Source: Glycomyces terrestris
GTDB taxonomy: Bacteria; Actinomycetota; Actinomycetes; Mycobacteriales; Micromonosporaceae
NCBI RefSeq assembly: GCF_003933745.1
Contig: NZ_RSEB01000001.1
Coordinates: 1-64,000, forward strand
DNA: 64,000 nucleotides
Direction of reading: 5' to 3'
This document shows, piece after piece, positions 9,148-30,067 of the stretch; positions within the stretch are counted from its first letter, which is position 1; each line of letters starts with the position of its first letter. The notes under the pieces are model-generated. The model had not been told where the DNA came from. It saw only the letters and a program-made list of their open reading frames with translations, and searched no databases. The translations under genes were made by a program, and so were the position numbers.

Positions 9148-9561
9148 GTGCCACAGTTCTTCATCGAAGCCCCCGCCGGCATCGCGCCCGACGCGAAGCG
9201 CCGGCTGATGCGCGAGGTCACCGACGCGATCGACGAGGCGTACCACATGCGGCCGGAGATCCAGGTGTGGCTGCGCGAGTACAGCGGCGACGCCGTCTCC
9301 TACGACGGTGAGCTCTACGGCGACGAGCCGATGCGCATCGTCGGCTTCCTCGAGGCGCCCGAACTCGCCAGCACCGACGCCAGCCGCAAGCTGACCTCGG
9401 CGGTCAACGAGGCGATCGGGACCGCGTACCAGGGCATCGCGAACACCGACGAGACCCTCATCCTCATGAACCGGTACCCGCTCCACGCCGCGGGCTTCCA
9501 GGGCCGGCTCCAGTCGGACGACCCGGAGGCCGTCGAGGCGATCGCCCAGTTGAACGCCTGA
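9148..9561 (+). CDS. Tautomerase family protein (4-oxalocrotonate tautomerase-like)
   Basis: A 137-residue protein beginning with GTG, set by AGGAGG at 9137-9142 five bases upstream. After Met removal the N-terminal residue is Pro (PQFFIEAPAGI), the general base of the tautomerase superfamily. A helix rich in conserved Lys/Arg and the strand IQVWLREY follow, matching the Tautomerase_3 type. It should isomerise an unsaturated keto acid; the substrate is unknown. It is divergent from the ECF sigma factor and shares its palindromic promoter region, so it is a likely target of that factor. A strong terminator closes the gene. Confidence 0.8.
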   Translation: MPQFFIEAPAGIAPDAKRRLMREVTDAIDEAYHMRPEIQVWLREYSGDAVSYDGELYGDEPMRIVGFLEAPELASTDASRKLTSAVNEAIGTAYQGIANTDETLILMNRYPLHAAGFQGRLQSDDPEAVEAIAQLNA

Positions 9562-9567
9562 GCACCG

Positions 9568-9597
9568 CGGGCCCGCGCCGAGACCGGCGCGGGCCCG
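9568..9597 (+). terminator. Strong hairpin terminator after tautomerase gene
   Basis: CGGGCCCGCGCC (9568-9579) pairs perfectly with GGCGCGGGCCCG (9586-9597), loop of 6 nt. It starts 6 nt after the tautomerase stop and also faces the end of the convergent small secreted protein gene. Confidence 0.75.
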
Positions 9598-9610
9598 TCG
9601 CGGTCCCGGG

Positions 9611-9877
9611 TCACACCAGGTGGCAGGCTTCGTCGGCGTGGGCCGGGTGGACGCGGATGGACACCAGCCGGTCGAAGCACCGCAGGTGCCCGTCCCAGTC
9701 CTGCGCCTCCTCGCAGGCGAGGTAGACGCTCGGCCCGACGATGTACTTCCGATCGCTGAGGTAGCCGGTGCAGTCGAGCACCCCGGCCTGCGCGGGCGCC
9801 GGCGCGGTGAGCGCGATGCCGCCGGCGAGCGCGAGCACCGCCAGGCCCCGGACGGTGCGTCGAGCGGTCGATGTCAT
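9611..9877 (-). CDS. Small secreted protein, four cysteines, unknown function
   Basis: An 88-residue protein. The first 30 residues are a typical Sec signal peptide (RRTVRG, then a hydrophobic run, then APAQAG). The mature part of about 57 residues has four Cys (in VLDCTG, YLACEE, LRCFDR, DEACHL) that could form two disulfides. I recognise no domain. It is a plausible real gene because of the signal peptide, a terminator at its end and actinobacterial codon pattern. Role unknown. Confidence 0.65.
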   Translation of the reverse strand: MTSTARRTVRGLAVLALAGGIALTAPAPAQAGVLDCTGYLSDRKYIVGPSVYLACEEAQDWDGHLRCFDRLVSIRVHPAHADEACHLV

Positions 9878-10069
9878 GCCGTTCCCCCTGTTCGTGAACG
9901 CCTCCAGCCGGAAGCTCGCCTGATCGTAGGGACGCCTGGGCGGAGACGTCGGGGGAACGGGCCACCTCCGTCGATCGGAAATCCGACAGGGCCTTCGGTT
10001 CGAGCGCGAGGACGGTGTTCACGGGCGGATCGGCGGTCCCCGGAGCGGCCGCCGGTCGGCCTCGCCGGG

Positions 10070-10672
10070 TCAGGCGCCGGTGTTCGTCAGGGCCGCAACG
10101 GCTTCGGGGTCGCCGGTGAGGTGGGTGTCGGCGGCGTCGCGGCGGCCGCTGAGGTAGAGGAGGAGTTCGACGGGGCGGCCGGTGAGGACGGCGCCGCCGC
10201 CGGGCCCGAAGTGGCGGGCGCGGCCGTCGGGGGTGCGCAGTTCGAGGCCGTGCGGGCGGATCTTCCGGGCGGCCCGCCAGGCGGTGAGGCGGCTGGTCTT
10301 CCAGGCGGCCTCGTCGAGGTCGGGGCGGCCGGCGCGGGGGCCGAGGCCGTTGGCGCGGCGGACGTCCTCGTGGTGGATGAGGTACTCGGCGCCGTTGAGG
10401 AGGCTGCGGAGCCCGGGAATGCACCACGGCAGGAGCGGGGCCCCGGCGCGGAGCCGGTCGACGAGGGCGGGAAGGCCCTTCGCCTTCGCCGCGGCCATCT
10501 TCGCGTCCGTCCAGCGGTTGAAGTGCTCGCGGAGCACGAGGTGCGCGGCGAGGTCCAGCGCGGTCCAGCCCTCGCACAGCGTCGGCGCGTCCGGTCCCAC
10601 CTCGGCCAGCAGGTCGCACAGGTCCTCGCGCTCGCGCGCGTCCAGCGGTGTCCGGTGCTGCGTGGCGCCCAT
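10070..10672 (-). CDS. TIGR03085 family metal-binding protein (DinB/maleylpyruvate-isomerase-like fold)
   Basis: A 200-residue protein with the pattern LLAEVGPDAPTLCEGWTALDLAAHLVLRE near the N-terminus. The conserved His of AAHLVLRE and the later HHEDVRRA His pair are the expected metal ligands of the MDMPI_N/DinB four-helix fold; the overall sequence fits the actinobacterial TIGR03085 family. Enzymes of this fold include mycothiol-dependent isomerases, but members of this family are uncharacterised. The ATG follows GGAGG at good spacing. It lies downstream of the first arsR on the same strand with 114 bp between; co-transcription is possible but not shown. Confidence 0.8.
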   Translation of the reverse strand: MGATQHRTPLDAREREDLCDLLAEVGPDAPTLCEGWTALDLAAHLVLREHFNRWTDAKMAAAKAKGLPALVDRLRAGAPLLPWCIPGLRSLLNGAEYLIHHEDVRRANGLGPRAGRPDLDEAAWKTSRLTAWRAARKIRPHGLELRTPDGRARHFGPGGGAVLTGRPVELLLYLSGRRDAADTHLTGDPEAVAALTNTGA

Positions 10673-10786
10673 TCGTCCTCCCCTTCACCGACACCGTACG
10701 CCGTCTGCGGGCCGGGCCGGTCCTCGCTCAGGTCGCGGAGGAGGTCCGGGCCCGCGCCGGTCCGAGCGGGGCCCGGTCGGCGGGCG

Positions 10787-11146
10787 TCAGCAGCAGCCGT
10801 CGTGCTCGGCGGGGTTCGAGAGGCCGGCGAGGGCGCGGAGCGGGGCGGAGAAGGCCTCGCAGCACAGGGAGTAGACGTTGCTGCGGCCCTTGGGGGTCAC
10901 GGAGACGAGGCCGAGCTCGCGCAGGGGCGCGAGGTGGTGGGAGACGAGGGTCTGGGCGAGACCGGTGGCCTCGGTCAGTTCGCGGACGGTGCGCGACTGC
11001 TCGGACAGGAGCAGGACGATCGCGAGGCGGTTCTCGTCGGCGAGGGCCTTGAACTGCGGCGCGAGGTCTTTGGCGTGCTCGATCACCGACGCGTCGGAGT
11101 GCCCGGCGCTCACGTCGGTCAAGGTGAGTTCGATCGTGCGGCTCAT
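10787..11146 (-). CDS. arsR: ArsR/SmtB family metalloregulator, C-terminal Cys pairs
   Basis: A 119-residue winged-helix repressor with recognition region TGLAQTLVSHHLAPLRELGLV. The usual CxC of alpha-3 is absent; instead there are Cys95-Cys96 (YSLCCEAF) and Cys118-Cys119 at the very end (DGCC). Acidithiobacillus ferrooxidans ArsR senses As(III) with Cys95, Cys96 and Cys102, so this looks like that C-terminal sensor type. It is divergent from the arsenic flavoprotein gene, and an AT-rich dyad lies between, so it probably represses both itself and that gene until As(III) or a related ion binds. It differs clearly from the second ArsR of the island. Confidence 0.85.
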   Translation of the reverse strand: MSRTIELTLTDVSAGHSDASVIEHAKDLAPQFKALADENRLAIVLLLSEQSRTVRELTEATGLAQTLVSHHLAPLRELGLVSVTPKGRSNVYSLCCEAFSAPLRALAGLSNPAEHDGCC

Positions 11147-11185
11147 GCGTCAAGTAAACCACAGAACTTGCTATCAACAGCATTC

Positions 11186-11206
11186 ACTGATATTAGTTAG
11201 ATCAGT
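11186..11206. promoter_or_regulatory. AT-rich dyad, putative ArsR operator
   Basis: ACTGAT (11186-11191) and ATCAGT (11201-11206) form a dyad with 9 nt between, in an unusually AT-rich patch in the 106-bp divergent region between arsR and the flavoprotein gene. A second looser dyad, CAAGT-N10-ACTTG, lies at 11151-11170 next to the arsR start. ArsR-family operators are typically AT-rich imperfect dyads of this size. Confidence 0.55.
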
Positions 11207-11252
11207 TGATGCGACCGTGGTGGTCGCCTCCCCGAACGCACAGGAGCCCGTC

Positions 11253-19227: not shown

Positions 19228-19842
19228 CTAGACGAAGGTCTGGACGAACTCCACGGCGAGCCAGGCCGCGAACACCAGCAGGATGACGCCGGAGACGCGG
19301 TCGAACCAGACGCGGCGCTCCTTGGTGAGGAAGCGGCGCATGCCGTGGGCGGCGGCGGCGAGGATGAGGAACCAGGTCCAGGACGCGGTGACCGCGCCGA
19401 TCGCGAACGGCAGGCGCGTGGCCGCGGCCTGGGCGGTGATCGCCGCGCCGAGGACGCCGACGGTGTCGAGGATGGCGTGCGGGTTGAGCAGCGAGACGGC
19501 CGCGGTCTGGCGCAGCACCTGGCCGCGGGACCAGGTGCCGGTGAGGTCGTCGAAGTCGGCCGGCTTGGTGCGCAGGGACTTCACGCCGAGGTAGGTGAGG
19601 AAGAGCGCGCCCGCCACGAGCATCGCCGGGCGCAGGCCGGGGACCGAGTCGAGCAGGACCGAGGTCCCGGCCGCGCCGAGGACGATGAGGAGGGTGTCGC
19701 ACAGGCCCGCGCCGACCACGGCCCACAGGGCGCGGGGCATGCCGAGGGTGACGCCCTGGCCGAAGACGAAGACGTTCTGCGCCCCGATCGGGACGATGAG
19801 CGCCAGGCCCAGGGCCAGGCCGGTGAAGTAGGCGGCGGTCAC
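19228..19842 (-). CDS. lysE: LysE/ArgO family amino acid exporter
   Basis: A 204-residue protein with the family start GLALIVPIGAQNVFVFGQG in TM1 and the NPHAILDTVG motif in the central loop, six hydrophobic spans in all. LysE and ArgO proteins export lysine, arginine or canavanine. Start is GTG at 19842, overlapping the upstream B3/B4-domain gene by 4 nt (GTGA), so the two are co-transcribed. Usually a LysG-type LysR regulator adjoins; here none does, so induction is not explained. Confidence 0.9.
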   Translation of the reverse strand: MTAAYFTGLALGLALIVPIGAQNVFVFGQGVTLGMPRALWAVVGAGLCDTLLIVLGAAGTSVLLDSVPGLRPAMLVAGALFLTYLGVKSLRTKPADFDDLTGTWSRGQVLRQTAAVSLLNPHAILDTVGVLGAAITAQAAATRLPFAIGAVTASWTWFLILAAAAHGMRRFLTKERRVWFDRVSGVILLVFAAWLAVEFVQTFV

Positions 19843-20564
19843 TGGGGCCCTTCGGCGTCGAGTCGGACGGTGCGGTCGGCGGCGGTGAGGACCCGGTGGT
19901 CGGTGACCGCGGCGCCTTCGGACAGGAGCTCCTTGAGGCGCTCGGCGGCGGCGTCGACGGCCTCGCGGGCCGCGTCGCCGACGCTGTCGAAGACGAAGAC
20001 CGCGCGGGTGGTGGCGGCGGTGACCTTGGTGGCGTCGGCGTCGCGGTGGTTCCAGTGGCGGGTCAGGACCTCCGCGCCCTGGGCGTAGACCACTTCGCCG
20101 GGCTTGGGGGCCTCACGCACGTCGGGTTCGCCCAGGGGCGTGAAGCCGTCGCCGTCGGCGGCGAAGCGGATGTCGACCCGGGGCTCCAGCGCGGCCAGGT
20201 CGAACGCGCCCGCGGGCACGCCGAAGCGCACCGAGACGAGGTTGTAGGCGTCGACGGCCGGGGTGATGCGCGGCAGGCGGCCGGACTTGGCGAGGCGGCG
20301 CTGGAGCGCTTCGACGCTGGGGCGCATCCGCTTCGGGTTGGTGCCGAACGCGCGGTAGGCCGCGTGCCAGGTCGCGATGCGCGGGTCCTCGGCGTCGAGC
20401 GCGGTCCAGGCGCCTTGGGCGGCTTCGGCTTCGAGCTCGTCCATCGCGGCGGCGGCCTTGGGCCAGGGTTCGCCGTTGCGCAGGGAGGCGGCGGCGATCA
20501 GGTGGATCCGCAGCTGCGGGAACGCCTCGGCGACGCCGTCGGCGACGGTGAACTCGGGGCTCAT
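19839..20564 (-). CDS. B3/B4 tRNA-binding-domain protein (PheT B3/4-like)
   Basis: A 241-residue protein with the B3/B4 domain of phenylalanyl-tRNA synthetase beta subunit: YRAFGTNPKRMRPSVEALQRRLAKSGRLPRITPAVDAYNLVSVRFGVPAGAFD is the hallmark. Free-standing B3/B4 proteins may edit mischarged tRNAs or bind amino acids. It is translationally coupled to lysE, which suggests a shared role in handling a non-standard or excess amino acid: hydrolysing its tRNA ester and pumping the free amino acid out. That functional link is inference. Confidence 0.85.
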   Translation of the reverse strand: MSPEFTVADGVAEAFPQLRIHLIAAASLRNGEPWPKAAAAMDELEAEAAQGAWTALDAEDPRIATWHAAYRAFGTNPKRMRPSVEALQRRLAKSGRLPRITPAVDAYNLVSVRFGVPAGAFDLAALEPRVDIRFAADGDGFTPLGEPDVREAPKPGEVVYAQGAEVLTRHWNHRDADATKVTAATTRAVFVFDSVGDAAREAVDAAAERLKELLSEGAAVTDHRVLTAADRTVRLDAEGPQ

Positions 20565-20602
20565 TCGCTGGTCCTCTCGGTGTGTCGTCGCACGGTCCGC
20601 GC

Positions 20603-21586
20603 TCACGCCCCGCCGCGGGCGGGCGTCGCGAGCACCCCGGAGCGCCGGCGCAGTCGCGTCGCGTACTCGGGGTCGGCGGCCATGAGCCGCCGGTGGAGCC
20701 ATGCGAGCCGGTGGTGCGGCACGCCCGGCCACAGGTGATGAACCGTATGGTAGCCGTCGTTATGGGGATGGATCAGCGCGCGCTGGAGGGTTCCCAGGTT
20801 GCTGACGGTGGCGTCGAAGACGGTGTCCGATCCGGTGTAGACGTGCTCGCTGGCCTCGGCGATGAACCGCAGGACCGGCAGGGCGAGCGCGTATCCGGCC
20901 AGCCAGACCGCGGCGGACGCGGCGGCGGCGCGCGGTCCGGCGGCGGCCCACGCCGGGGCGGCCGCGGCGGCCAGGCCCCAGGCGACGGGCACGAGGGCGA
21001 GGGCCGGCGCGGTCTGGAGGCTGTCGCGCCACCAGGTGCGCTGGTAGGCCGGGAGGCGGCGCAGGAGCCCGAGCGCGAACGCGGCGGCGCTGGAGCGGTC
21101 GAGGGCCTCGAGGTCGAGTTCGCGGTAGCGCTGCCGGTCGGGGTCCTCGTCGGTGCCGAAGGCGCCGTGGTGGCGCAGGTGGCTCTCGCGGTAGCCGGCG
21201 AGCCGGGCGCCGGTCGGGAGCGCGGCGAGGGCCGTGGCGAGGACGTCGTTGAGCAGGCGGTGCTTGCGGCTCCAGTTGAAGTGGGAGCCTTCGTGGACGA
21301 GGTTCTCGAGGGCGCGCAGCTGGCGTCCGGTGAGGACGGCCGCGAGGACCGCGGCGACCAGTCCGGCGAAGGGCTGCACGGTGAGGAGCCAGCCGGCGGC
21401 GGCGCAGGCGGCGATCATGGCGGCCTGGTCGGCGACGGCGGCGGCCGCGGTGCGCCAGGGGCGGGTGCGGTGGGCGGCCTTGATGTCCTCGCGGAGTGCC
21501 GCGGGGGTCGAATAGCCGCGGCGGTATCGGTGGGATTCGACTTTGTCGACAATTTGACTGGGGACGGCTGAATTCGTTGCTCGCAT
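20603..21586 (-). CDS. Membrane fatty acid desaturase-like di-iron protein
   Basis: A 327-residue protein with the three His boxes of membrane desaturases: HEGSH, HLRHH and HTVHH, and hydrophobic spans between. The C-terminal layout (HNDGYHTVHHLWPGVPHHRLAWLHRRL) is typical. The substrate could be a fatty acyl chain, or a small lipid or carotenoid. GGAG lies upstream of the ATG. It is divergent from the chorismatase operon across 481 bp, so it may be a tailoring enzyme of that cluster or an unrelated neighbour. Confidence 0.85.
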   Translation of the reverse strand: MRATNSAVPSQIVDKVESHRYRRGYSTPAALREDIKAAHRTRPWRTAAAAVADQAAMIAACAAAGWLLTVQPFAGLVAAVLAAVLTGRQLRALENLVHEGSHFNWSRKHRLLNDVLATALAALPTGARLAGYRESHLRHHGAFGTDEDPDRQRYRELDLEALDRSSAAAFALGLLRRLPAYQRTWWRDSLQTAPALALVPVAWGLAAAAAPAWAAAGPRAAAASAAVWLAGYALALPVLRFIAEASEHVYTGSDTVFDATVSNLGTLQRALIHPHNDGYHTVHHLWPGVPHHRLAWLHRRLMAADPEYATRLRRRSGVLATPARGGA

Positions 21587-22067
21587 TGTCCGCTCCGAAT
21601 GAAGGGGGTCGGCCGGGAGCAAGGAAAGCAGGATTGCAAGATCAACTCCAGCCATTGTGATGCATGTAACCGGCGGAGGATCGGAGGATCAAGATCGTTT
21701 TCTCGCGACGAGTCGCGGGGCGCGAAAATGATCTTGGATGGAGTTCTTGAAGGGACTCGAATAGACGCCTGTTACTTGTGACCCAGAACACTTTTCAATA
21801 TTTTCATCGGTGATGAGCTGGGATTTCACGACCGTTCACTGTTTTCCTGCGGAGCGGTGACCGGACGTGATCGGTGCGTCATGCTAGATTGTCCGAGGTT
21901 TCCCGGAAGTCGGGAACGCCCCCATTGCAGTCTCTTCCCCGGACTGTCGATCCCCATTCTCGAACCGTTCACTGCAATCCGGAATAGTGCACATCGGTGT
22001 GCGCGGTCCCGGTGTTCGGGCGCGCCTCCTCCCCGGGCGGGCCCGTATTCCACGGATAGGTGTCCAG
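21587..22067. other. Long AT-richer leader between desaturase and chorismatase operon
   Basis: There are 481 bp without a gene I believe. Base composition is visibly lower in GC than neighbouring genes. It contains a 45-nt hairpin (21691-21735), a small 6-bp hairpin at 21900-21916 (TTCCCG/CGGGAA), and two of three copies of ACCGTTYAC that continue into the first gene. It should hold the desaturase promoter and the promoter and regulator sites for the chorismatase operon. Small frames here lack a good Shine-Dalgarno and homology. Confidence 0.5.
21691..21735 (+). promoter_or_regulatory. Hairpin in the chorismatase-operon leader
   Basis: AAGATCGTTTT (21691-21701) pairs with AAAATGATCTT (21725-21735) with one G-T pair, and inside it CGCGAC (21704-21709) pairs with GTCGCG (21712-21717). 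Its role (attenuation, terminator of an unseen transcript, or protein site) is open. Confidence 0.4.
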
Positions 22068-22096
22068 TTGATCTTCTCTACTCTCGAACCGTTTAC
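21831..22096 (+). repeat. Three copies of ACCGTTYAC upstream of the chorismatase operon
   Basis: ACCGTTCAC at 21831-21839 and 21964-21972, and ACCGTTTAC at 22088-22096. The last two sit in a longer 16-mer direct repeat (TTCTCGAACCGTTCAC at 21957 and CTCTCGAACCGTTTAC at 22081; two mismatches, 124 bp apart). The spacing and conservation suggest sites for one regulator, which is not encoded next to the operon. Confidence 0.5.
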
Positions 22097-23093
22097 AAGG
22101 GAGGGAACGGATCTGCCCGTTCCCGGCCCCGCGGGCGCGTTCCCGATGGCCGCGGTCGCGTTCCGCAACGGCCCGGCCTCCCTCGGGTTCGCGCCCGCGG
22201 GCGACCACCTCGCGATGACCGTCCCGATGGCGCGCCCGGGCGAGCCCGGCTGCGTCGAGACCTGGTGGTGCGAGGAGCCGCCCGAGACGGGCCGCGCCGG
22301 CGACATCCTGTACGCGTGCGGCGACGAGGTCGCCCTGTGCGCGGCGGTCGTCGAGCACCGGTCCGTGTACGCGCCCGCCGTCGAGCAGCGGTACCGGGAG
22401 GTCTTCGCGTTCCTGGAGGCCCACGGCTACCGGCGCCTGCTGCGGGTCTGGAACTTCATCGAGACCATCAACGCCGCGAACGCCGACGGCCTCGAGGTCT
22501 ACCGCGACTTCTGCAAGGGCCGCGCCGACGCGTTCGCCGCGCACCCGGTGTTCTCCCGGTCGATGCCGGCCGCCACGGGCATCGGCACCACCGGCAGCGG
22601 CATCTCGTTCTTCCTGCTGGCGGTCAAGGACGCCGAGGTCCGCCACATCGAGAACCGCCGGCAGACGCCCGCGTACCGGTACCCCGCGCGGTACGGGCCG
22701 CGCAGCCCCAGCTTCGCCCGCGCGACCACGATGACCGCGCGGCCGGGCGAGGCGCCGACTCTGTTCGTCTCCGGCACCGCGAGCATCCTCGGGCACGAGA
22801 CCGTGTTCGCGGGCGACATCGAGAAGCAGTGCGCGACCACCGCCGACAACATCGCCGAGCTCATCGGCAACTGCTACGGCGGCGCGAAGTCGCTCACCGA
22901 CGTCGACGCCGTCAAAGCCTATGTGCGCCATGCCCACCACGTGGAGTACGTGCGCGAGTTCTGCGCCTCGGCGTTCGGCCCGCGCGCCTCGCTGGCGGTG
23001 TTCAACGTGGACATCTGCCGCGGCGACCTGCTGGTGGAGATCGAGGCGATCGTCGGCGGCGCCGCCGTCGGCGCCGAGGCGGTGCGGGCATGA
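22068..23093 (+). CDS. Chorismatase (FkbO/Hyg5 family), probably 3-hydroxybenzoate-forming
   Basis: This protein hydrolyses chorismate. Hallmarks are RVWNFIETINAAN followed by ADGLEVYRDFCKGRA, the ATGIG loop, ENRRQTPAYRYPARYGPR, and the C-terminal DICRGDLLVEIEAIV with the catalytic Glu. FkbO-type enzymes give 3,4-dihydroxycyclohexadiene carboxylate; Hyg5-type enzymes give 3-hydroxybenzoate. The motif VSGTAS carries Gly where FkbO has Ala, which favours the Hyg5 type. The start is uncertain: TTG at 22068 gives 341 residues, close to known chorismatases; GTG at 21987 and a CTG at 22113 with a perfect AAGGGAGGG site are alternatives. Its stop overlaps the aminotransferase start (ATGA). First gene of a seven-gene operon whose next enzymes fit 3-hydroxybenzoate as substrate. 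Confidence 0.88.
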   Translation: MIFSTLEPFTREGTDLPVPGPAGAFPMAAVAFRNGPASLGFAPAGDHLAMTVPMARPGEPGCVETWWCEEPPETGRAGDILYACGDEVALCAAVVEHRSVYAPAVEQRYREVFAFLEAHGYRRLLRVWNFIETINAANADGLEVYRDFCKGRADAFAAHPVFSRSMPAATGIGTTGSGISFFLLAVKDAEVRHIENRRQTPAYRYPARYGPRSPSFARATTMTARPGEAPTLFVSGTASILGHETVFAGDIEKQCATTADNIAELIGNCYGGAKSLTDVDAVKAYVRHAHHVEYVREFCASAFGPRASLAVFNVDICRGDLLVEIEAIVGGAAVGAEAVRA

Positions 23094-24289
23094 GCGACCT
23101 GGTCAACCCCGAGATCGCACGGCTCGGCGCGCATCCGTTCCCGCGCGTGGCCGCGCTGCTCGACGGCGTCGAGCCGCCGCCCGGGCCCGCCGTCGACCTG
23201 ACCATCGGCGAGCCGCGCGTCGCCCCGCCCGCCTGGCTCGCCTCCCGGCTCGCCGAGCACGGCGGCACGCTGGGGACCTACCCGCGCAACGAGGGCACCG
23301 CCGCGTTCCGCGCGGCCGCCTCCGGCTGGCTCGACCGCCGGTTCCAGCTCGACCCCGCGCTCCCGCCCGAGGCGGTCGTGCCGAGCTCCGGCGCCCGCGA
23401 GGTGCTGTTCCAGCTGGGCCTGCTCGCGCGCGGGAAGGGCCTGGCGGTCATGCCGACCCCGCACTACGCGCCCTACCGGGCCGCCGCGCGGCTCACCGGC
23501 CTCGACCCGGTCTACCTGGCCTGCGACGAGGCCGGCGGGTTCCTCCCCGACCTCGACGAGGTCGACCGCCTCGGCCCGCGGATCGCGCTGCTCACCCTCT
23601 GCTCCCCCACCAATCCCGAAGGGGCCGTGGCGAGCCGCGGCTACCTGGACCGGGCCGTGCGGCTCGCGCGGCGGCACGGGTTCGTGCTCGCCGTCGACGA
23701 GTGCTACTCCGAGATCTACCGCGGCGAACCCCCGTACGGCGTCCTCCGCGTCTGCGCCGAGCAGGCAGGCGGCGGCGACCCGTTTGCGAACGTCCTCGCG
23801 GTGAACTCGCTGTCGAAGCGGTCCTCGGCGCCCGGCCTGCGCATCGGGTTCGCCGCCGGGGACCGCCGGCTCGTCCAGGGCCTCATCGACCTCCGCGCCT
23901 ACACCGCCGGCACGGTCGGCTGCCCGAACCTGGGCGCCGCCGCCGACCTCCTCGCCGACGAGTCGCACGTCGAGCGCATCCGCGGCTTCTACCGCGAGCT
24001 GTTCGACGCCGCCGACGCGATCCTCGGCGGCCTCCCGGGCTACCGGTCCCCCGAGGCCGGGATGTTCCTGTGGCTGCGGGTCGACGACGGCGAGGCCGTC
24101 GCCGTCGAGTGCTGGGAGCGCGCCGGGCTCCGCGTCGTCCCCGGCGCCTACATCGGACCGAAGGCGCACGACGGCACCTGGTCCGCCGCCGGGTACGTGC
24201 GCGTCGCGATGGTCCACGACCTCGACACCACCAGGGCCGCCCTGGAACGGCTCGCGCCGATCCTCCTCAAGCACGGGGTGGTCGCATGA
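23090..24289 (+). CDS. PLP-dependent aminotransferase, DapC-like (class I/II)
   Basis: A 399-residue fold-type I aminotransferase. The PLP lysine is in VNSLSKRSSAPGLRIGF, the Asp in AVDECYSEIYRG, and SPTNPEGAV is the substrate-side motif. Closest in pattern to N-succinyl-diaminopimelate aminotransferases (DapC), whose substrate is a C7 dicarboxylic keto acid. Inside this operon, no lysine pathway gene is present, so a specialised role is likely. The ring-opened product of the downstream dioxygenase, maleylpyruvate, is also a C7 dicarboxylic alpha-keto acid, so it is my favoured substrate (inference). Overlaps both neighbours by 4 nt. Confidence 0.85.
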   Translation: MSDLVNPEIARLGAHPFPRVAALLDGVEPPPGPAVDLTIGEPRVAPPAWLASRLAEHGGTLGTYPRNEGTAAFRAAASGWLDRRFQLDPALPPEAVVPSSGAREVLFQLGLLARGKGLAVMPTPHYAPYRAAARLTGLDPVYLACDEAGGFLPDLDEVDRLGPRIALLTLCSPTNPEGAVASRGYLDRAVRLARRHGFVLAVDECYSEIYRGEPPYGVLRVCAEQAGGGDPFANVLAVNSLSKRSSAPGLRIGFAAGDRRLVQGLIDLRAYTAGTVGCPNLGAAADLLADESHVERIRGFYRELFDAADAILGGLPGYRSPEAGMFLWLRVDDGEAVAVECWERAGLRVVPGAYIGPKAHDGTWSAAGYVRVAMVHDLDTTRAALERLAPILLKHGVVA

Positions 24290-25467
24290 CGGGCCTGCCG
24301 GTCCTGGTCGCGGGCGGCGGCATCGGCGGCCTCGCGGCGGCGGTGAGCCTGGCCCGCAAGGGAATCCCCTCGCTCGTGCTCGAACGCAACGCGGCCTTCG
24401 ACGAGATCGGGGCGGGCATCCAGCTCGGCCCCAACGCCCTCGCCGTCCTCGACGCGATCGGCGCCGGGGCACGCGTGCGCGAGCGCCTCATCCCCGTGGG
24501 GCACCTGGAGATCCGCGACGCACTCGACGGCCGCGCCCTCGTCAGGCTCGACCTGCGCGGCGCCTTCCGCGAGCGCTACCGCGCCGGGTACGGCGTCATC
24601 CACCGCGGCGACCTCCTGCGCGCGCTCCACGAGAGCTGCCTCGAGTCGCCGCTCGTCGCGCTCGCGGTGAACGCCGAGGCCGTCGACTGGGAGGAGCGGC
24701 CCGACCGGGTCGAGGTCCGCACCGCCGACGGCCGCCGCCTCCAGGGCCGGTGCGTCATCGCCGCCGACGGCCTCCACTCCCGGTTCCGCCAGGCCATCGC
24801 CGGCGACGGCGAGCCCGTCCCTTCAGGACACGCGACGTACCGCTGCCTCATCCCGGCCGACCGGATGCCCGCGGCGAGCCGCGTCGACGGGGCCGTCCTG
24901 TGGGCCGGACCCGACTGCCACCTCGTGCACTACCCGCTCAAGGACCGGGCCGTCTACAACGCCGTGGTCACCGTCAACGACGGCTCCGCGGACACCGCCC
25001 GCGGCGAGGCCGTGCCCGACGAGGAGGTCCGCGCCCGCTTCGACCGGATCGGCGCGGGCGCGGCGGCGTTCCTCAGCGCGGGCACCGGCTGGCGGCGCTG
25101 GACGCTGCGCGACCGCGAACCCGTCGCGACCTGGACCAAGGGCCGCGCCGCGCTCCTCGGCGACGCCGCCCACCCGATGCTCCAGTACGCGGCCCAGGGC
25201 GCGTGCATGGCGATCGAGGACGCCGCCGCGCTCGCCGGCCACCTCGCCGCCCAGGAGGACCCGCAGGCGGCCCTCGACGGGTACGCGGCCGCGCGGCGCG
25301 AGCGCACCGCCCGCGTCCAGCGGCTCTCCCGCTGGATGGCCGCGGAGGTCTACCACCCCGCGGGCACCGCCGCGAAGCGCCGCGACGCCATGCTCCTCGG
25401 CCTGTCCGAGGAGCGCCTGCTCGACCACCTCGCCTGGCTCTACACCCCGTTCGGAGGGATCGCGTGA
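24286..25467 (+). CDS. FAD-dependent aromatic monooxygenase, 3-hydroxybenzoate 6-hydroxylase-like
   Basis: A 393-residue group A flavoprotein monooxygenase. FAD motif GGGIGGLAAAVSLARKG near residue 10, the DG motif CVIAADGLHSRFRQ, and the second FAD motif LLGDAAHPMLQYAAQGACMAIEDA are all intact. It belongs with salicylate hydroxylase and 3-hydroxybenzoate 6-hydroxylase. After a chorismatase giving 3-hydroxybenzoate and before a gentisate dioxygenase, para-hydroxylation of 3-hydroxybenzoate to gentisate fits best. Start ATG and stop TGA each overlap their neighbours by 4 nt. A 4-hydroxybenzoate- or salicylate-type substrate cannot be excluded from sequence alone. Confidence 0.87.
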   Translation: MTGLPVLVAGGGIGGLAAAVSLARKGIPSLVLERNAAFDEIGAGIQLGPNALAVLDAIGAGARVRERLIPVGHLEIRDALDGRALVRLDLRGAFRERYRAGYGVIHRGDLLRALHESCLESPLVALAVNAEAVDWEERPDRVEVRTADGRRLQGRCVIAADGLHSRFRQAIAGDGEPVPSGHATYRCLIPADRMPAASRVDGAVLWAGPDCHLVHYPLKDRAVYNAVVTVNDGSADTARGEAVPDEEVRARFDRIGAGAAAFLSAGTGWRRWTLRDREPVATWTKGRAALLGDAAHPMLQYAAQGACMAIEDAAALAGHLAAQEDPQAALDGYAAARRERTARVQRLSRWMAAEVYHPAGTAAKRRDAMLLGLSEERLLDHLAWLYTPFGGIA

Positions 25468-26498
25468 CCACAGGACTCGAACGGTACTCGGCGTCCATCG
25501 CCGCCGAGGGCCTCGTCCCGCTCTGGGACCGCTTCAGGACGCTCGTGCGGCCCGAGCCCGCCGGCGGCGCGGCCGCCCACCGCTGGCGGTACGCCGCGAT
25601 GCGCGAGCACCTCATGCGCGCGGGCGAGCTCATCTCCGTCGAGGAGGCCGAGCGCCGCGTCCTCATCCTCGAGAACCCCGCGCTCGCCGGCACCTCCTCG
25701 ATCACGCGGACGCTGTACGCCGGCCTCCAGCTGGTGCGGCCCGGCGAGGTCGCCCCCGCGCACCGGCACACCCAGTCCGCGCTGCGGCTCATCCTCGAAG
25801 GCGAGAGCGCGTACTCCACGGTGGACGGCGACAAGACGCCGATGCGCTTCGGGGACGTGGTGGTCACGCCGCCGTGGTCCTGGCACGACCACGGCAACGA
25901 CGGCGCGCCCGCCGAGGACACGATCTGGCTCGACGCGCTCGACATCCCCACGGTGGGCTTCTACGACGCCTCGTTCATGGAGAACCACCCCGACCGAGCC
26001 CAGAAGCCCGAGCCCGACGGCCGGGCCGCGCTATGGGCCGCCGGGCTGCGGCCCCTCGACCGGCCGCAGCCGGCGAACCCCGTCACCTCCTACCCGTACG
26101 CGGCCGCGCTCAAGCGGCTGGAGCAGTACGCGGCCCGCCAGGCCCCGCACCCGGTGCGCGGCTGGGAGGCCGAGTACACCGACCCGTCCACCGGCGGCCC
26201 GATCCTCAAGACCATCAGCGCGTTCCTCAGCCTGCTGCCGGCCGGGCCGAGCCGGGGGACGTACCGGTCGACCGACGCCACCGTGTTCGTCCCCGTCGAA
26301 GGCACCGGCGCCACCACCGTGGGCGGCGAGGTCTTCGAGTGGGGGCCGCGCGACGTGCTCGTCCTGCCCGCGTGGGTCCCGTACGCGCACGAGGTGGACG
26401 ACGGCGCGGCCGTCGTCTTCTCCTACAGCGACCGCGCCGCCCAGACCGCCCTCGGCCTCTGGCGCGAGGCCTTCGACACCACCCGCCATGGAGCCTGA
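25464..26498 (+). CDS. Bicupin ring-cleavage dioxygenase, gentisate 1,2-dioxygenase-like
   Basis: A 344-residue bicupin. The first cupin has VAPAHRHTQSALRLILEG with the two His metal ligands, and TPPWSWHDHGN with the third; these are signatures of gentisate 1,2-dioxygenase. The C-terminal cupin lacks most ligands, as in that family. Fe(II)-dependent cleavage of gentisate yields maleylpyruvate. There is no maleylpyruvate isomerase or fumarylpyruvate hydrolase nearby, so it is not a standard gentisate degradation operon. Start is GTG at 25464 in GTGA overlap with the monooxygenase stop, with GGAGGG before it. Confidence 0.88.
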   Translation: MTTGLERYSASIAAEGLVPLWDRFRTLVRPEPAGGAAAHRWRYAAMREHLMRAGELISVEEAERRVLILENPALAGTSSITRTLYAGLQLVRPGEVAPAHRHTQSALRLILEGESAYSTVDGDKTPMRFGDVVVTPPWSWHDHGNDGAPAEDTIWLDALDIPTVGFYDASFMENHPDRAQKPEPDGRAALWAAGLRPLDRPQPANPVTSYPYAAALKRLEQYAARQAPHPVRGWEAEYTDPSTGGPILKTISAFLSLLPAGPSRGTYRSTDATVFVPVEGTGATTVGGEVFEWGPRDVLVLPAWVPYAHEVDDGAAVVFSYSDRAAQTALGLWREAFDTTRHGA

Positions 26499-26499
26499 G

Positions 26500-27708
26500 A
26501 TGAACGTCCTCCTCGTCCACGTCAAGAAGAACCGCCTCCCCGACCACATCGTCAAGGCGCTGTTCCCGCAGTTCCTCACCGTCATCACCGAACCGGGGCA
26601 CCTCCAGGAGTACGGGCCCGGCGTCGACGTGCGCCTGGTCGAGGACGTCCAGGACCTCGAGTGCCTGCGCGCCGAGGTCCTGGAGGTGCTGCGGCAGCGG
26701 CGCATCGACCGGATCTTCATGCCGTTCGAGCTCGGCCAGGCCCAGGCCGCGTTCGTCCGGGAGTACTTCGGCATCCCCGGCATCGGCTTCACCGCCGCCA
26801 ACGCGCTCACCAACAAGTACGTGATGAAGCTGCGGCTGCGCGAGGCCGGCCTCCCGCAGGCGCCGTTCGCCCTCGCCGCGGGCGTCGACCGGATCGAGGC
26901 GGCCGGCGACGAGGTCGGCTGGCCCGTCGTCGTCAAGCCCGCCGTGGGCGGGGGCTCGCTCGACGTCTTCACGTTCGACTCCGCCGCGGAGGCCCGCGCG
27001 TTCGCCGCGAGCCGCGACGCCGACCCGATCAGGAAGCTCACCTGCCCGCTCGTCGTGGAGTCCTTCGTGGACATCCGGACCGAGCTGCACTGCGACGGCG
27101 TCGTCGACGGCGGCGAGGTCCGGTTCGCGAAGGCGTCCGAGTACTTCGTGCCGGTCCTCGGCCACGGCGAGCAGTTCGGGTCCCGCATCCTCCCCGACGG
27201 CGACCCCGTCGCCGCCGAGATCCTCGACCTCCACCGCCGCGCGGTGGCCGCGACGGGCCTCGAGTCGGGCGTCACGCACATGGAGTTCTTCCAGACCGAG
27301 GACGGCCTGCTCGCCAGCGAGATCGCCTGCCGCCCGGCCGGCGGCGGCATCCCGCACGCCGTGAAGCTCCAGACCGGGGTCGACATCTGGGCCGCCTGCC
27401 TCGACACGGCGCTCGGCCGCGCCCCGAAGACCGCCGAGACTGAGACCGGCGCCGGGACCGTCGCCCACTGGTACCTCACCGTGCCGCCGGGCCGGATCGT
27501 CAAGCTCACCGACGCCGACCAGCTCCGCCAGATCGACGGCGTGATCGACGTCGTCGCCAACTTCAAGGTCGGCGACTCGGTCCCGACCCGGCAGAACTCG
27601 GCCACGGCCGCGATGCTCGTGTTCGCGCGCGCCGACAGCTTGGCCGAGGTCGAGCGCCTCCACAAGGAGATCTACGGCGCCTACCGGGTGGAGGTCAGCA
27701 GCGAGTGA
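26500..27708 (+). CDS. ATP-grasp ligase 1
   Basis: A 402-residue ATP-grasp protein. The ATP-grasp core is seen in WPVVVKPAVGGGSLDVF (first Lys and Gly-rich loop) and in SEIACRPAGGGIPH, where E and R of the ExxxRxGG pattern bind metal and phosphate. Such enzymes form acyl-phosphate intermediates and join a carboxylate to an amine. N- and C-terminal parts resemble carboxylate-amine ligases of small-peptide pathways rather than primary-metabolism enzymes. ATG at 26500 is chosen since GGAG precedes it by six bases; an ATG four codons earlier would overlap the cupin gene. It is coupled to the second ligase by a GTGA overlap. Confidence 0.85.
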   Translation: MNVLLVHVKKNRLPDHIVKALFPQFLTVITEPGHLQEYGPGVDVRLVEDVQDLECLRAEVLEVLRQRRIDRIFMPFELGQAQAAFVREYFGIPGIGFTAANALTNKYVMKLRLREAGLPQAPFALAAGVDRIEAAGDEVGWPVVVKPAVGGGSLDVFTFDSAAEARAFAASRDADPIRKLTCPLVVESFVDIRTELHCDGVVDGGEVRFAKASEYFVPVLGHGEQFGSRILPDGDPVAAEILDLHRRAVAATGLESGVTHMEFFQTEDGLLASEIACRPAGGGIPHAVKLQTGVDIWAACLDTALGRAPKTAETETGAGTVAHWYLTVPPGRIVKLTDADQLRQIDGVIDVVANFKVGDSVPTRQNSATAAMLVFARADSLAEVERLHKEIYGAYRVEVSSE

Positions 27709-28859
27709 GCCGTCCCCAGGAGCGCCGCTGCGTGCTCGCGTTCAACCCCAAGCCCAACATCCTCGACCGCTTGCGCGCCAAGGGGTTCGACGCCGTCGCC
27801 GTGTTCCCCGGGGCCGCGCCCGAGTACGCCGCGCCGCTGAGCGCCCTCGTCGTCGACCACGCCGACGCCGACGCCGTGGTCAAGGCGCTCGACGCCGCCG
27901 GGCTCCCGGTCGCCGGGGCGCTCACCCACAGCGAGGCGGCCCTCCGGCTCGCCGACGAGGTCGCGCACCGCCTCGGCCTGCCCGCGAACCCGGCCCGGGC
28001 CACCGCGGCCTCGGTCGACAAGGCCGCCATGCGCCGGCTGCTCCAGGAGGACGAGCGGTTCGCCGTCGCCCACCGCGTCGCGGCCGACCGGGACGAGCTC
28101 GCCGCCGCGATCGCCGCGCACGGCAAGGTGGTCGCGAAGCCGCGCGACGGCGCCGGCTCGGTCGGCGTCCGCGTCCTCGACGCGGCCTCGGACCTCGCCG
28201 GGATCACCTACCCGGTGCTCGCCGAGGAGTACCTCGACGGGCCCGAGTTCTCGGTGGAGGCCCTGAGCGTCGACGGCGGGCACCGGATCCTCGGGATCAC
28301 CGAGAAGTTCCTGTTCCCCGGCACCGTGGTCGAGTCGGGGCACCTGTTCCCGGCGCGGCTCGCGCCCGCGGCCGCCGCGGAGGTCACCGCCCACGTCGGG
28401 GACTTCCTCGACCTCCTCGGCGTCCGGCTCGGCGTCACCCACACCGAGGTGAAGCTGACCGCCAAGGGCCCCAAGGTGATCGAGACGCACACCCGCTCGG
28501 GCGGGGACCACATCGCGAAGCTCGTGACGCTCGCGACCGGGGTCGACCCGATCGCCGAGAGCGTCGTGACCGCCACCGGCGGCGCACCCGAGTTCGAGGT
28601 CCGACACCACTCCTGGGCGACCGCGCAGTTCCGCGCCTTCCCACCCGGGACGGTCGCGCGCGTCGCCGGCGTCGACGTCGCGCGCCACCAGCCGGGCGTG
28701 AACTTCGTCGAGTCGGACCTCGCTCCAGGCGTGGAGGTCCGCGCGATCACCAGCTCCCACGACCGGCTGCTCGGCGTGGTCGCGATCGGCCGCGACCCGC
28801 AGGAGGCCCTCGACAACGCCAACCGCGCCCTCGACCAGGTGCGGGTCGAGACCGCGTAG
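27705..28859 (+). CDS. ATP-grasp ligase 2 (L-amino acid ligase-like)
   Basis: A 384-residue ATP-grasp ligase. Core motifs: GKVVAKPRDGAGSVGVRV, EEYLDGPEFSVEALS, and ETHTRSGGDHI, the catalytic E-x-H/N-x-R-x-GG pattern of L-amino acid ligases and carnosine-synthase relatives; the C-terminal GVVAIGRDPQEALDNANRAL segment is also typical. It differs clearly from ligase 1, so the two probably catalyse consecutive amide bonds. Start is GTG at 27705, overlapping the ligase 1 stop. The MFS exporter follows two bases after the stop. Confidence 0.87.
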   Translation: MSRPQERRCVLAFNPKPNILDRLRAKGFDAVAVFPGAAPEYAAPLSALVVDHADADAVVKALDAAGLPVAGALTHSEAALRLADEVAHRLGLPANPARATAASVDKAAMRRLLQEDERFAVAHRVAADRDELAAAIAAHGKVVAKPRDGAGSVGVRVLDAASDLAGITYPVLAEEYLDGPEFSVEALSVDGGHRILGITEKFLFPGTVVESGHLFPARLAPAAAAEVTAHVGDFLDLLGVRLGVTHTEVKLTAKGPKVIETHTRSGGDHIAKLVTLATGVDPIAESVVTATGGAPEFEVRHHSWATAQFRAFPPGTVARVAGVDVARHQPGVNFVESDLAPGVEVRAITSSHDRLLGVVAIGRDPQEALDNANRALDQVRVETA

Positions 28860-28861
28860 CG

Positions 28862-30067
28862 ATGTCGTCCAAACGGGCCGAACTGGCCTTCCTCGCCGTG
28901 CGCGGGTGCAGCGCCGCCGCGTACTTCCTGCTGGTGCCGTTCCTGGCGCTGTGGCTCATCGAGGCCCGCGGCCTCGGCGGCGCCGCGGCCGCCACCGTGG
29001 TCGCGCTGTGCCTGTTCTTCGGCCGCGCCGGCGGCATGATGGCCGCGCGGGCCCTCGACCGCATCGGCCTGCGGCGCGCGGTCCTGCTCGCCTACGCCGT
29101 CGCCGTCGGGACCGCCGCCGCGATGGCGCTGTACCCCGGCGACCGGCTCGCGGTGTGGATCGCCCTCGCCTCGGTGCTGGGCCTGGCGTTCTCCTCGGCG
29201 ACGGCGGCCCTCAAGGCGCTCGTGGCCGCGGCGTACTCCCCCGAGCAGCGGCTCTGGGCCTTCGCGAAGCTGAACCTCGCAGTGAACGCCGGCTCGGCCG
29301 CGGGCGTGGCCGCGGGCGGCTACGTGGTCGCCGAGGCGCCGCACCTGCTGGCGTGGTGCGCGGTGGTCCTGTACGGCGGCGCACTGGCGGCGGTGCGGTT
29401 CATGCCGGGCGCGGACGCGGCGCCGAGCACGGACGCCGCCGAGGCGCCCGCCGCGGGCGGCCGGGCCGCACTGTGGGCGTTCCTCGGGTTCACCGCGATC
29501 ACCTGGACCGCGTACGCGCAGGTGTTCAACGTGCTTCCCGCCTTCAGCGCCGACACGGTGGGGCCCAAGGCGATCGCCGCGCTGTTCGTCCTGAACTCGG
29601 TGATGGTCCTGGCGCTCCAGGCGCCGCTCACGGCCGCGCTGGAGCGCTGGCGGCGGTCCCGGCCGCGCGCGGCCGCGCTCGCGGTCCTGCCGGGGGCGCA
29701 CGCGGTCCTGGCGGTGTCGGTGCTCGCGTTCGGCTTCACCGGGCACGCCCCACTCTGGTCCGTGTACGCGGCGATGGCGGCCTTCACCGTGGCCGAGCTC
29801 GTCTTCGGCCCGGCGTACGACGCGATGGTCGCGGAGGTCAAGGGCCGCATGAGCACCGTCGGGGCCTACGGCGTCGCGGGCGCGGCCCGCGGCGGCGCGG
29901 AGTCGGCCGGCTCCTGGCTCGGCATCACCGCGGTGACCGGCCTCGCGTGGCCGGCGGCCGGCATCCCGTTCTGGGCCGCGGGCGCGGGCCTGCTGGTCGT
30001 GACGGGCTACTTCGCCTGGTACGCGGCGAAGGCGCGCACCCGCGAGCCGGACCGCGCCCTCGCCTGA
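28862..30067 (+). CDS. MFS transporter, last gene of the chorismatase operon
   Basis: A 401-residue protein with twelve predicted hydrophobic spans and a motif A-like loop (RALDRIGLRRAVLLAY). It starts two bases after ATP-grasp ligase 2, so it belongs to the same transcript and is probably the exporter, giving self-protection, for the product of the operon. It is similar in outline to small-molecule and peptide antibiotic exporters of DHA1 type. It converges on the DUF4913 gene, seven bases apart; no terminator hairpin is obvious. Confidence 0.85.
   Translation: MSSKRAELAFLAVRGCSAAAYFLLVPFLALWLIEARGLGGAAAATVVALCLFFGRAGGMMAARALDRIGLRRAVLLAYAVAVGTAAAMALYPGDRLAVWIALASVLGLAFSSATAALKALVAAAYSPEQRLWAFAKLNLAVNAGSAAGVAAGGYVVAEAPHLLAWCAVVLYGGALAAVRFMPGADAAPSTDAAEAPAAGGRAALWAFLGFTAITWTAYAQVFNVLPAFSADTVGPKAIAALFVLNSVMVLALQAPLTAALERWRRSRPRAAALAVLPGAHAVLAVSVLAFGFTGHAPLWSVYAAMAAFTVAELVFGPAYDAMVAEVKGRMSTVGAYGVAGAARGGAESAGSWLGITAVTGLAWPAAGIPFWAAGAGLLVVTGYFAWYAAKARTREPDRALA

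What the first reader, a model, noticed from the sequence alone, without database searches (positions are those of the whole stretch)
22068..30067. Candidate new biosynthetic pathway: chorismatase, hydroxylase, gentisate-type ring cleavage, transaminase, two ATP-grasp ligases and exporter
Seven genes overlap or abut in one operon. Chorismatase makes 3-hydroxybenzoate, a 3-hydroxybenzoate 6-hydroxylase-like enzyme would give gentisate, and a gentisate dioxygenase would open it to maleylpyruvate. A cell that builds gentisate from chorismate would hardly do so to burn it, and the usual degradation enzymes (maleylpyruvate isomerase, fumarylpyruvate hydrolase) are absent. So ring cleavage looks like a building step, followed by amino-group transfer and two amide-forming ligases, then export. 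I know of no characterised pathway with this order.
Basis: partly seen in the sequence, partly recalled or inferred. Interest (0 to 1): 0.88.

Follow-up and report, generated by a model that had tools for sequence, protein, structure and literature searches.

The report
Ring-opening operon for an antimetabolite peptide
An actinobacterium carries seven tightly packed genes that are predicted to make an aromatic acid, break its ring open, turn the fragment into an unusual reactive amino acid and likely export it inside a small peptide, which would be a new route to antibiotics and might hit DapA, a bacterial lysine and cell-wall enzyme.

Summary
The seven genes are real, complete and in one direction; four of six junctions overlap by 4 bases. 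Each matches its family, and known catalytic residues of Hyg5-type chorismatase, 3-hydroxybenzoate 6-hydroxylase and gentisate dioxygenase are kept in all five clusters compared. The core (chorismatase, aminotransferase, hydroxylase, dioxygenase, RizA-like ligase) recurs in the same order in two other Glycomyces, Streptomyces zaomyceticus and Plantibacter flavus. It is rare; gentisate dioxygenase occurs in 3 of 22 Glycomyces genomes, each time in this cluster. None of 23 FAA-hydrolase-family matches in those five genomes lies near the cluster. Ring cleavage as a building step is therefore the best reading. I predict that the DapC-like aminotransferase converts maleylpyruvate to 2-amino-4-oxohept-5-enedioate and that the ligases hide it in a peptide. 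New here: the P. flavus operon contains a second, translationally coupled dapA, and S. zaomyceticus has a dapA homologue beside its cluster. Synthetic 4-oxo-2-heptenedioates, the same C7 skeleton, are irreversible DapA inhibitors (titles seen). So DapA is the likeliest target, dapA a likely self-resistance gene. Against: no Glycomyces cluster has dapA. No chemistry was tested.

The parts
22068..23093 (+). Chorismatase, FkbO/Hyg5 family, Hyg5 (3-hydroxybenzoate) type predicted; start codon uncertain
   Evidence: TIGR04444 343 bits over cut-off; Cys of Hyg5 C327 and Glu of E334 kept, SGTAS as in Hyg5 not SATAG as in FkbO
23090..24289 (+). Class I/II PLP aminotransferase, DapC-like; predicted to aminate ring-opened maleylpyruvate
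   Evidence: TIGR03538 DapC 305 bits, under cut-off; best solved relative 3jtx; PLP lysine K243
24286..25467 (+). FAD hydroxylase, 3-hydroxybenzoate 6-hydroxylase type
   Evidence: NF006021 416 bits; nearest solved 4bjy; equivalents of H213, Y217 and Q301 at H212, Y216, Q300
25464..26498 (+). Gentisate 1,2-dioxygenase (bicupin)
   Evidence: TIGR02272 398 bits; nearest solved 2d40; HRH...H motif at H100, H102, H141
26500..27708 (+). ATP-grasp L-amino acid ligase 1, RizA-like
   Evidence: LAL_C2; profile vs RizA 4wd3 300 bits, next chain 66 bits
27705..28859 (+). ATP-grasp L-amino acid ligase 2
   Evidence: LAL_C2 and ATP-grasp_4; only two solved relatives found, both L-amino acid ligases
28862..30067 (+). 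MFS exporter
   Evidence: PF07690
21656..22067 (.). Space between the divergent desaturase gene and the operon; place for the operon promoter
   Evidence: position only; no promoter was tested
20603..21655 (-). FA-desaturase-family gene beside all three Glycomyces clusters; also in two Glycomyces without the cluster, so membership unsure
19839..20564 (-). Stand-alone B3/4 (PheT editing-like) domain protein, same flanking block
19228..19842 (-). LysE-type amino acid exporter, same flanking block

Best explanation
The operon is predicted to turn chorismate into 3-hydroxybenzoate and then gentisate, to open the ring to maleylpyruvate, to aminate this to the reactive C7 amino acid 2-amino-4-oxohept-5-enedioate, and likely to join it to ordinary amino acids as a small peptide that would be exported as an antimetabolite. 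Shown by sequence: seven coupled genes, their families, conserved catalytic residues, a conserved five-gene core in three genera, no FAA-hydrolase or PF11716 isomerase gene beside it. Inferred: each reaction, the identity of the amino acid, the peptide. Reasons for the inferred steps: maleylpyruvate is the only alpha-keto acid (besides released pyruvate) that the first three enzymes would leave behind, and the aminotransferase is closest to DapC models, whose substrate is also a C7 alpha-keto dicarboxylate (recalled). Ligase 1 is closest to RizA, which caps a toxic amino acid in rhizocticin (role recalled). Likely target (weaker inference): DapA. The predicted amino acid has the carbon skeleton, the amine and the 4-oxygen of the open-chain DapA intermediate, with the carbon that normally binds the catalytic lysine turned into the electrophilic end of an enone, so it would trap that lysine. 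P. flavus and S. zaomyceticus carry a dapA gene in or beside the cluster that would serve as self-resistance.
For: Families and domains. Residues: Hyg5 C327/E334 and SGTAS (role of E334 from passages of PMC7170507); 3HB6H H213/Y217 (roles from passages and a reference title in PMC6043778); GDO histidines. Coupling. Synteny: L022, L023, L024, L027. Nine contigs, some of them of the clusters already named and one the window's own, tie ligase 1 and a cluster-type dioxygenase by equal contig length. Cluster-type dioxygenases (18 of 41 rows) stand apart from 23 background ones with 100/100 support. Rare and patchy: ligase 1 at 1e-75 in 7 of 354 family genomes, 3 of them Glycomyces with the cluster and 4 with weaker ligases, 1 of 299 in the family of P. 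flavus, 5 of 392 in the genus of S. zaomyceticus at 1e-70. Dioxygenase in 3 of 22 Glycomyces. No FAA hydrolase near 5 of 5 clusters. DAHP synthase in the S. zaomyceticus cluster. RizA: 300 bits, 4wd3 named as RizA in PMC6920838. dapA: the P. flavus in-operon copy passes the dapA equivalog model at 281 bits against 206 and is one of two in that genome at 1e-20; S. zaomyceticus copy beside the chorismatase; Streptomyces NPDC058326 dapA, dioxygenase and ligase 1 share contig length 544127. 4-oxo-2-heptenedioates as irreversible DapA inhibitors: titles of Turner 2005 and Boughton 2008 in reference lists.
Against: Hydroxylase, dioxygenase and aminotransferase score below their equivalog cut-offs. 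dapA is absent from all three Glycomyces clusters read, and G000 has a single dapA at 1e-20. The S. zaomyceticus dapA belongs to a common paralogue group (3997 of 7998 scored candidates reach 1e-55; the 120 listed are 61% or more identical and those with names are actinobacteria), falls just under the dapA cut-off (205.9 against 206.15) and has Phe for the Tyr107-type residue. A dapA homologue also sits beside ligase 1 in Streptomyces sp. HD, where no ring-cleavage gene was found on the 15.6 kb held, which ends 4.4 kb past the ligase. The Kitasatospora contig (117217) shows no dapA among the 120 listed hits, and of the nine linked contigs only 544127 does. Ligase 2 is not conserved; P. flavus has a FemAB-like protein instead. 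Ligase 1 of the clusters did not come out as one clade (labels incomplete, long-branch warning). The synthetic inhibitors named in the title are E diesters; maleylpyruvate is Z (recalled). General FAA hydrolases and DinB-type isomerase-family proteins exist elsewhere in the genome.
Confidence: 0.5

Rival explanations
1. Same first three steps, but the ring-opened product is closed again with nitrogen (a 4-oxo-piperidine- or pyridine-2,6-dicarboxylate), and that cyclic acid is what the ligases couple.
For: The predicted amino acid could cyclise by adding its own amine to the enone; dipicolinate-like acids are also C7 (chemistry from general knowledge). DapA homologues in two clusters normally feed ring-closed C7 acids.
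Against: No dedicated cyclase or dehydrogenase family was matched in the seven genes.
Confidence: 0.2
2. The hydroxylase and dioxygenase act on a different aromatic substrate, for example an aminated or ligase-bound one, and not on free 3-hydroxybenzoate and gentisate.
For: Both score under the equivalog cut-offs; cluster dioxygenases form a group separate from background ones; the aminotransferase gene comes second in the operon.
Against: Residues for 3-hydroxybenzoate and gentisate binding are kept; an alpha-keto acid for the aminotransferase is hard to find before ring cleavage; the 5-aminosalicylate dioxygenase model scores far lower (213 against 398 bits).
Confidence: 0.12
3. dapA in the related clusters is a biosynthetic aldolase that enlarges or reshapes the product, not a resistant target.
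For: DapA relatives act on pyruvate and other alpha-keto acids by Schiff base (recalled); the S. zaomyceticus copy has diverged active-site neighbours.
Against: The core occurs without dapA in three Glycomyces; the P. flavus copy passes the dapA equivalog model well.
Confidence: 0.1
4. An ordinary catabolic operon for 3-hydroxybenzoate or gentisate that happens to carry ligases and an exporter.
For: Hydroxylase and dioxygenase are catabolic families; FAA hydrolases (5 matches in G000) and PF11716 proteins (8 matches in G000) exist elsewhere, and a DinB-type TIGR03083 gene lies at 10070-10672.
Against: Chorismatase is the first gene; no FAA hydrolase or over-threshold PF11716 gene near 5 of 5 clusters; patchy spread.
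Confidence: 0.05

Closest known systems
Rhizocticin (RizA) dipeptide antimetabolites
   Same: RizA-type L-amino acid ligase; toxic amino acid hidden in a peptide, taken up and released in the victim (passages of PMC4302243); target is an enzyme of an amino acid pathway
   Different: Warhead here would come from chorismate by ring cleavage, not from a phosphonate; C-terminal pocket positions of RizA (T81, K83, S84, S156, A158, passages of PMC9321006) are F, L, G, G, S in ligase 1 by my reading of the alignment
Bacilysin (BacD) pathway
   Same: Warhead from the shikimate branch, an aminotransferase, a BacD-class ligase and an MFS exporter (gene set recalled)
   Different: Bacilysin keeps the carbocycle of prephenate (recalled); here the ring would be opened; ligase 1 is much closer to RizA than to BacD
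L-DOPA ring cleavage in lincomycin and pyrrolobenzodiazepine pathways
   Same: An aromatic ring is opened to make an amino acid building block (recalled)
   Different: Different dioxygenase, substrate and product; amine would be added after cleavage here
Gentisate degradation pathway
   Same: 3-hydroxybenzoate 6-hydroxylase and gentisate 1,2-dioxygenase families
   Different: Starts with a chorismatase; no FAA hydrolase or PF11716 isomerase beside it
Engineered gentisate and maleate routes (PMC7862547, PMC5658364; search listings and abstract starts only)
   Same: Abstract starts tell of a plasmid-free gentisate pathway and of a maleate pathway that includes benzene ring cleavage; the full texts hold the words chorismatase, Hyg5 and gentisate
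   Different: Man-made; the listed text shows no amination, ligation or export

Membership tests
Hyg5-type chorismatase (CH-II) | FkbO/Hyg5 family match | tested here: met
   TIGR04444 343 bits, cut-off 325
Hyg5-type chorismatase (CH-II) | Catalytic Glu-334 and Hyg5-type Cys-327, Gly in SGTAS | tested here: met
   Alignment to 5ag3 and 4bps; kept in 5 of 5 clusters. The discriminating role of Cys-327 and the Gly is recalled
Hyg5-type chorismatase (CH-II) | Makes 3-hydroxybenzoate | not testable with these tools
   Needs assay
3-hydroxybenzoate 6-hydroxylase | Equivalog model cut-off | tested here: not met
   416 of 459 bits; best of the models listed
3-hydroxybenzoate 6-hydroxylase | His213, Tyr217, Gln301 | tested here: met
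   H212, Y216, Q300; kept in 5 of 5; role of Gln301 recalled
Gentisate 1,2-dioxygenase | Equivalog model cut-off | tested here: not met
   398 of 442 bits; best model
Gentisate 1,2-dioxygenase | Metal-binding histidines of the N-terminal cupin | tested here: met
   HRH and H141, kept in 5 of 5; assignment as metal ligands recalled
Gentisate catabolic operon | Isomerase and hydrolase for maleylpyruvate in the operon | tested here: not met
   PF01557 and PF11716 searches; other isomerase families not searched
L-amino acid ligase (RizA/BacD class) | ATP-grasp fold with LAL_C2, nearest solved relative an L-amino acid ligase | tested here: met
L-amino acid ligase (RizA/BacD class) | Forms a dipeptide from free amino acids | not testable with these tools
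   Needs assay
DapC aminotransferase | Equivalog cut-off | tested here: not met
   305 of 475 bits; filed as DapC-like only
DapA (P. flavus cluster copy) | dapA equivalog model; Thr-Thr, Tyr107, Tyr133, Arg138, Lys161 motifs | tested here: met
   281 bits, cut-off 206; motifs (residue numbers recalled from E. coli DapA)
DapA (S. zaomyceticus copy) | dapA equivalog model; Tyr107 | tested here: not met
   205.9 of 206.15 bits; PYF in place of PYY
Target-duplication self-resistance | Resistant second copy of the target | tested here: inconclusive
   Second copy present in P. flavus; resistance untested; no dapA in the three Glycomyces clusters

The most novel reading that the evidence does not exclude
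The operon makes nature's own suicide inhibitor of DapA: chorismate is rebuilt, by gentisate ring cleavage and a DapC-like transamination, into an electrophilic copy of the DapA reaction intermediate, delivered as a RizA-type peptide, and clusters that carry dapA protect themselves with a resistant target copy.
Probability: 0.3. Interest if true: 0.93.

Novelty: new variant of a known kind. Interest (0 to 1): 0.74.

Why it matters
If true, a textbook degradation reaction has been turned into a construction step, and the product would be a ring-opened, reactive amino acid. DapA is a long-studied antibacterial target in lysine and cell-wall synthesis; I recall no natural-product inhibitor of it, and none of the 10 papers listed (of 424) by the one search made for it holds the enzyme's name. 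The gene set is small, complete and can be moved to a laboratory host, so the idea can be tested directly, and the dapA genes give a genome-mining handle for the product class.

Tried and rejected
Catabolic reading: tested by family searches for FAA hydrolases and PF11716 isomerases in five genomes; none near the clusters. FkbO-type chorismatase (dihydrodiol product): rejected on residues. 5-aminosalicylate dioxygenase: lower score. Ligase 1 as D-Ala-D-Ala ligase, biotin carboxylase or PurK: much lower scores than RizA. Is dapA a conserved part of the core? No: 2 of 5 clusters read. Is the DAP epimerase gene some 20 kb away in S. zaomyceticus (L025 13272-14048) part of it? Set aside: neighbours such as a thymidine-kinase-like gene suggest a housekeeping region (my reading). 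Is the LysE, B3/4 and desaturase block part of the pathway? Unsure: beside 3 of 3 Glycomyces clusters but also in G018 and, with stops in the desaturase, in G009, which lack the cluster. The plasmid search gave only matches below 60% identity (165 records). Structure prediction was not used: it would not decide substrates. Rows left out: 5 of 24 dapA-type loci were dropped because the frame picked by the script did not match DapA; one search used 41 rows (the 20 best, every fifth of the other 100 listed, and the window); one search used 51 of 112 ligases, with labels for Glycomyces P0002-P0006 missing.


Full report
WHAT IS THERE. The window is part of a 5.24 Mb genome of the genus Glycomyces: handles G007 and G015, marked same genus, match G. 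lechevalierae and G. arizonensis loci by coordinates and contig lengths. At 22068-30067 lie seven + strand genes. Four junctions overlap by 4 bases; the others have gaps of 1 and 2 bases. So this is very likely one transcription unit with translational coupling. Families are chorismatase, class I/II aminotransferase, FAD hydroxylase, gentisate dioxygenase, two ATP-grasp ligases with the L-amino acid ligase C-terminal domain, and an MFS exporter.

ENZYME IDENTITY. The chorismatase passes the FkbO/Hyg5 model. Against the solved Hyg5 it keeps the cysteine at 327 and the glutamate at 334 and has SGTAS, where FkbO has alanine and SATAG. Passages of PMC7170507 name Glu-334 as the catalytic acid that leads to 3-hydroxybenzoate. 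That Cys-327 separates the two types is recalled. The hydroxylase is nearest to 4bjy (deposited as probable salicylate monooxygenase; I recall it as the 3-hydroxybenzoate 6-hydroxylase of R. jostii). It keeps the equivalents of His213, Tyr217 and Gln301; a passage and a reference title in PMC6043778 give the roles of Tyr217 and His213. The dioxygenase is nearest to 2d40, deposited as putative gentisate 1,2-dioxygenase, and keeps HRH and the third histidine. All these residues are kept in the five clusters compared. Scores of hydroxylase and dioxygenase are the best among the models listed but under the equivalog cut-offs, so exact substrates are inferred. The aminotransferase fits DapC models best, under cut-off; its nearest solved chain is 3jtx, deposited only as aminotransferase. 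DapC works on a C7 alpha-keto dicarboxylate (recalled). Ligase 1 matches RizA (4wd3, named as RizA in PMC6920838) with 300 bits by profile, the next chain having 66.

CONSERVATION. A scan of the species genome collection with the ligase-1 alignment gave 10 loci. Four of them, in G. lechevalierae, G. arizonensis, S. zaomyceticus and P. flavus, hold chorismatase, aminotransferase, hydroxylase, dioxygenase and ligase 1 in the window's order and direction; the other six do not on the stretch held. In P. flavus a dapA gene lies after the chorismatase and a FemAB-like gene between dioxygenase and ligase 1. A close relative of ligase 2 (65-71%) follows only in the Glycomyces clusters; S. zaomyceticus has another ATP-grasp gene in that place and a 36% relative further on, on the other strand, and P. 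flavus has the FemAB-like gene. Equal contig lengths link ligase 1 with a cluster-type dioxygenase on 9 contigs, the window's own included, among them Kitasatospora NPDC001119 and Streptomyces NPDC058326; this is an inference from lengths, not a read contig. In a tree of 41 dioxygenases, 18 including the window stand apart from 23 background ones with 100/100 support; 7 of the 18 were not linked to ligase 1. Ligase 1 itself did not come out as one clade (labels incomplete and a long-branch warning), so the ring-opening set may pair with more than one ligase line.

RARITY. Ligase 1 at 1e-60: 4 of 394 genomes drawn from the class, the window's own included; the other three held no ring-opening set on the stretches read. 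At 1e-70: 5 of 392 in the genus of S. zaomyceticus and 1 of 299 in the family of P. flavus with the P. flavus query. At 1e-75: 7 of 354 in the window's family, only the three Glycomyces above 45% identity. With the S. zaomyceticus query at 1e-90: 6 of 287 in its family. Dioxygenase at 1e-60: 3 of 22 Glycomyces, each in the cluster. This patchy pattern suits a horizontally moving secondary-metabolism cluster.

NOT DEGRADATION. Of 45 PF11716 matches listed, the nearest over threshold is about 30 kb away in G. arizonensis. One DinB-type gene of the TIGR03083 domain family lies at 10070-10672 in the window, 11 kb off and on the other strand. General versions of both families exist in the genomes, so a side route cannot be excluded, and other isomerase families were not searched. 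S. zaomyceticus has a class II DAHP synthase gene after the exporter of its cluster (492 bits, under the cut-off of 615), which would raise chorismate supply.

MECHANISM PROPOSED. Chorismate would give 3-hydroxybenzoate and pyruvate, then gentisate, then maleylpyruvate, which is 4,6-dioxohept-2-enedioate. Apart from the released pyruvate it is the only alpha-keto acid in the chain, so it is the natural partner for the aminotransferase. The product would be 2-amino-4-oxohept-5-enedioate. The ligases would join it to ordinary amino acids. In rhizocticin the peptide is taken up and cleaved to free the inhibitor (passages of PMC4302243), and RizA strongly prefers an N-terminal arginine (passages of PMC9321006). 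That RizA acts in rhizocticin synthesis is recalled; a reference title there names its source strain as a rhizocticin producer. Pocket positions of RizA for the C-terminal residue differ in ligase 1 (my reading), as expected for another warhead.

WHY DAPA. The P. flavus operon holds a second dapA between chorismatase and aminotransferase, with 4-base overlaps on both sides (the aminotransferase GTG at 5321 is read, since the start tried was one codon early). It passes the dapA equivalog model at 281 bits, keeps the active-site motifs compared and is 41% identical to the other dapA of that genome. In S. zaomyceticus a dapA homologue lies directly before the chorismatase. It belongs to a common actinobacterial paralogue group, sits just under the model cut-off, and has PYF for PYY. 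In a weakly supported tree the two cluster copies are not sisters. Streptomyces NPDC058326 has an 84% identical copy on a contig of the same length as its cluster genes. With 2 and 4 dapA-type genes in these two genomes, a random 20 kb stretch would hold one about 1% of the time each. Reference lists name Turner 2005, diethyl (E)-4-oxo-2-heptenedioate as an irreversible inhibitor of dihydrodipicolinate synthase (DapA), and Boughton 2008 on 4-oxo-heptenedioic acid analogues (titles only). The predicted amino acid is the 6-amino form of 4-oxo-2-heptenedioate. In the DapA open-chain intermediate, C2 bears the amine, C4 the oxygen and C6 the lysine; in the predicted compound C6 is the beta carbon of the enone (my reasoning). 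Against this, three Glycomyces clusters lack dapA, so these producers would rely on masking and export. Streptomyces sp. HD has dapA next to a ligase 1 without the ring-opening genes on the stretch held, which ends 4.4 kb past the ligase at the contig end.

LITERATURE. Full-text searches of an open-access library: chorismatase with gentisate and gene cluster (3 papers, an engineered gentisate route, an engineered maleate route and a C. glutamicum engineering review, by titles and abstract starts), maleylpyruvate with aminotransferase, natural product and ATP-grasp (23 papers, 15 listed, none of this pathway by title), names of the predicted amino acid (none), DapA with self-resistance (424 papers, 10 listed, none of the 10 holds the enzyme name). 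Absence there is weak evidence.

VERDICT. The interpretation of ring cleavage as a building step is well supported by comparative evidence. The product, the peptide and the DapA target are predictions with falling confidence.

Noticed in passing
window 19228-21655 (-): LysE exporter, stand-alone B3/4 domain protein and FA-desaturase-family gene form a block beside all three Glycomyces clusters; the block also occurs in G018 without the cluster and, with stops in the desaturase, in G009. The genes further out differ at the sites read, which hints at a mobile unit.
   Followed up: partly
window 20311-20400: ARAGORN calls a tRNA-Pro inside the B3/4 gene on the other strand; probably a false call.
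   Followed up: no
L024 and L025 (S. zaomyceticus): A second ligase-1 copy and an 86% identical partner ligase lie about 21 kb from the main cluster, next to an M20-peptidase-like gene (named by eye) but without the ring-opening set.
   Followed up: partly
L026 (Streptomyces sp. HD) 8806-11209: dapA homologue divergent from a ligase-1 gene with no ring-cleavage genes seen on the part held; a possible related antimetabolite cluster.
   Followed up: no
L065-L072: Other ligase-1 relatives mostly sit with further ligases, MFS exporters or FemAB-like proteins in actinobacteria, a broad set of unexplored small-peptide clusters.
   Followed up: no
P0065 and P0019: An Aeromonas ligase is sister to a dioxygenase-linked ligase (99/97), so the cluster may reach Gammaproteobacteria.
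   Followed up: no
window 51773-56033 (-): Amidohydrolase-like gene followed by a nitrate/taurine-type ABC transporter set, judged by eye from the translations.
   Followed up: no
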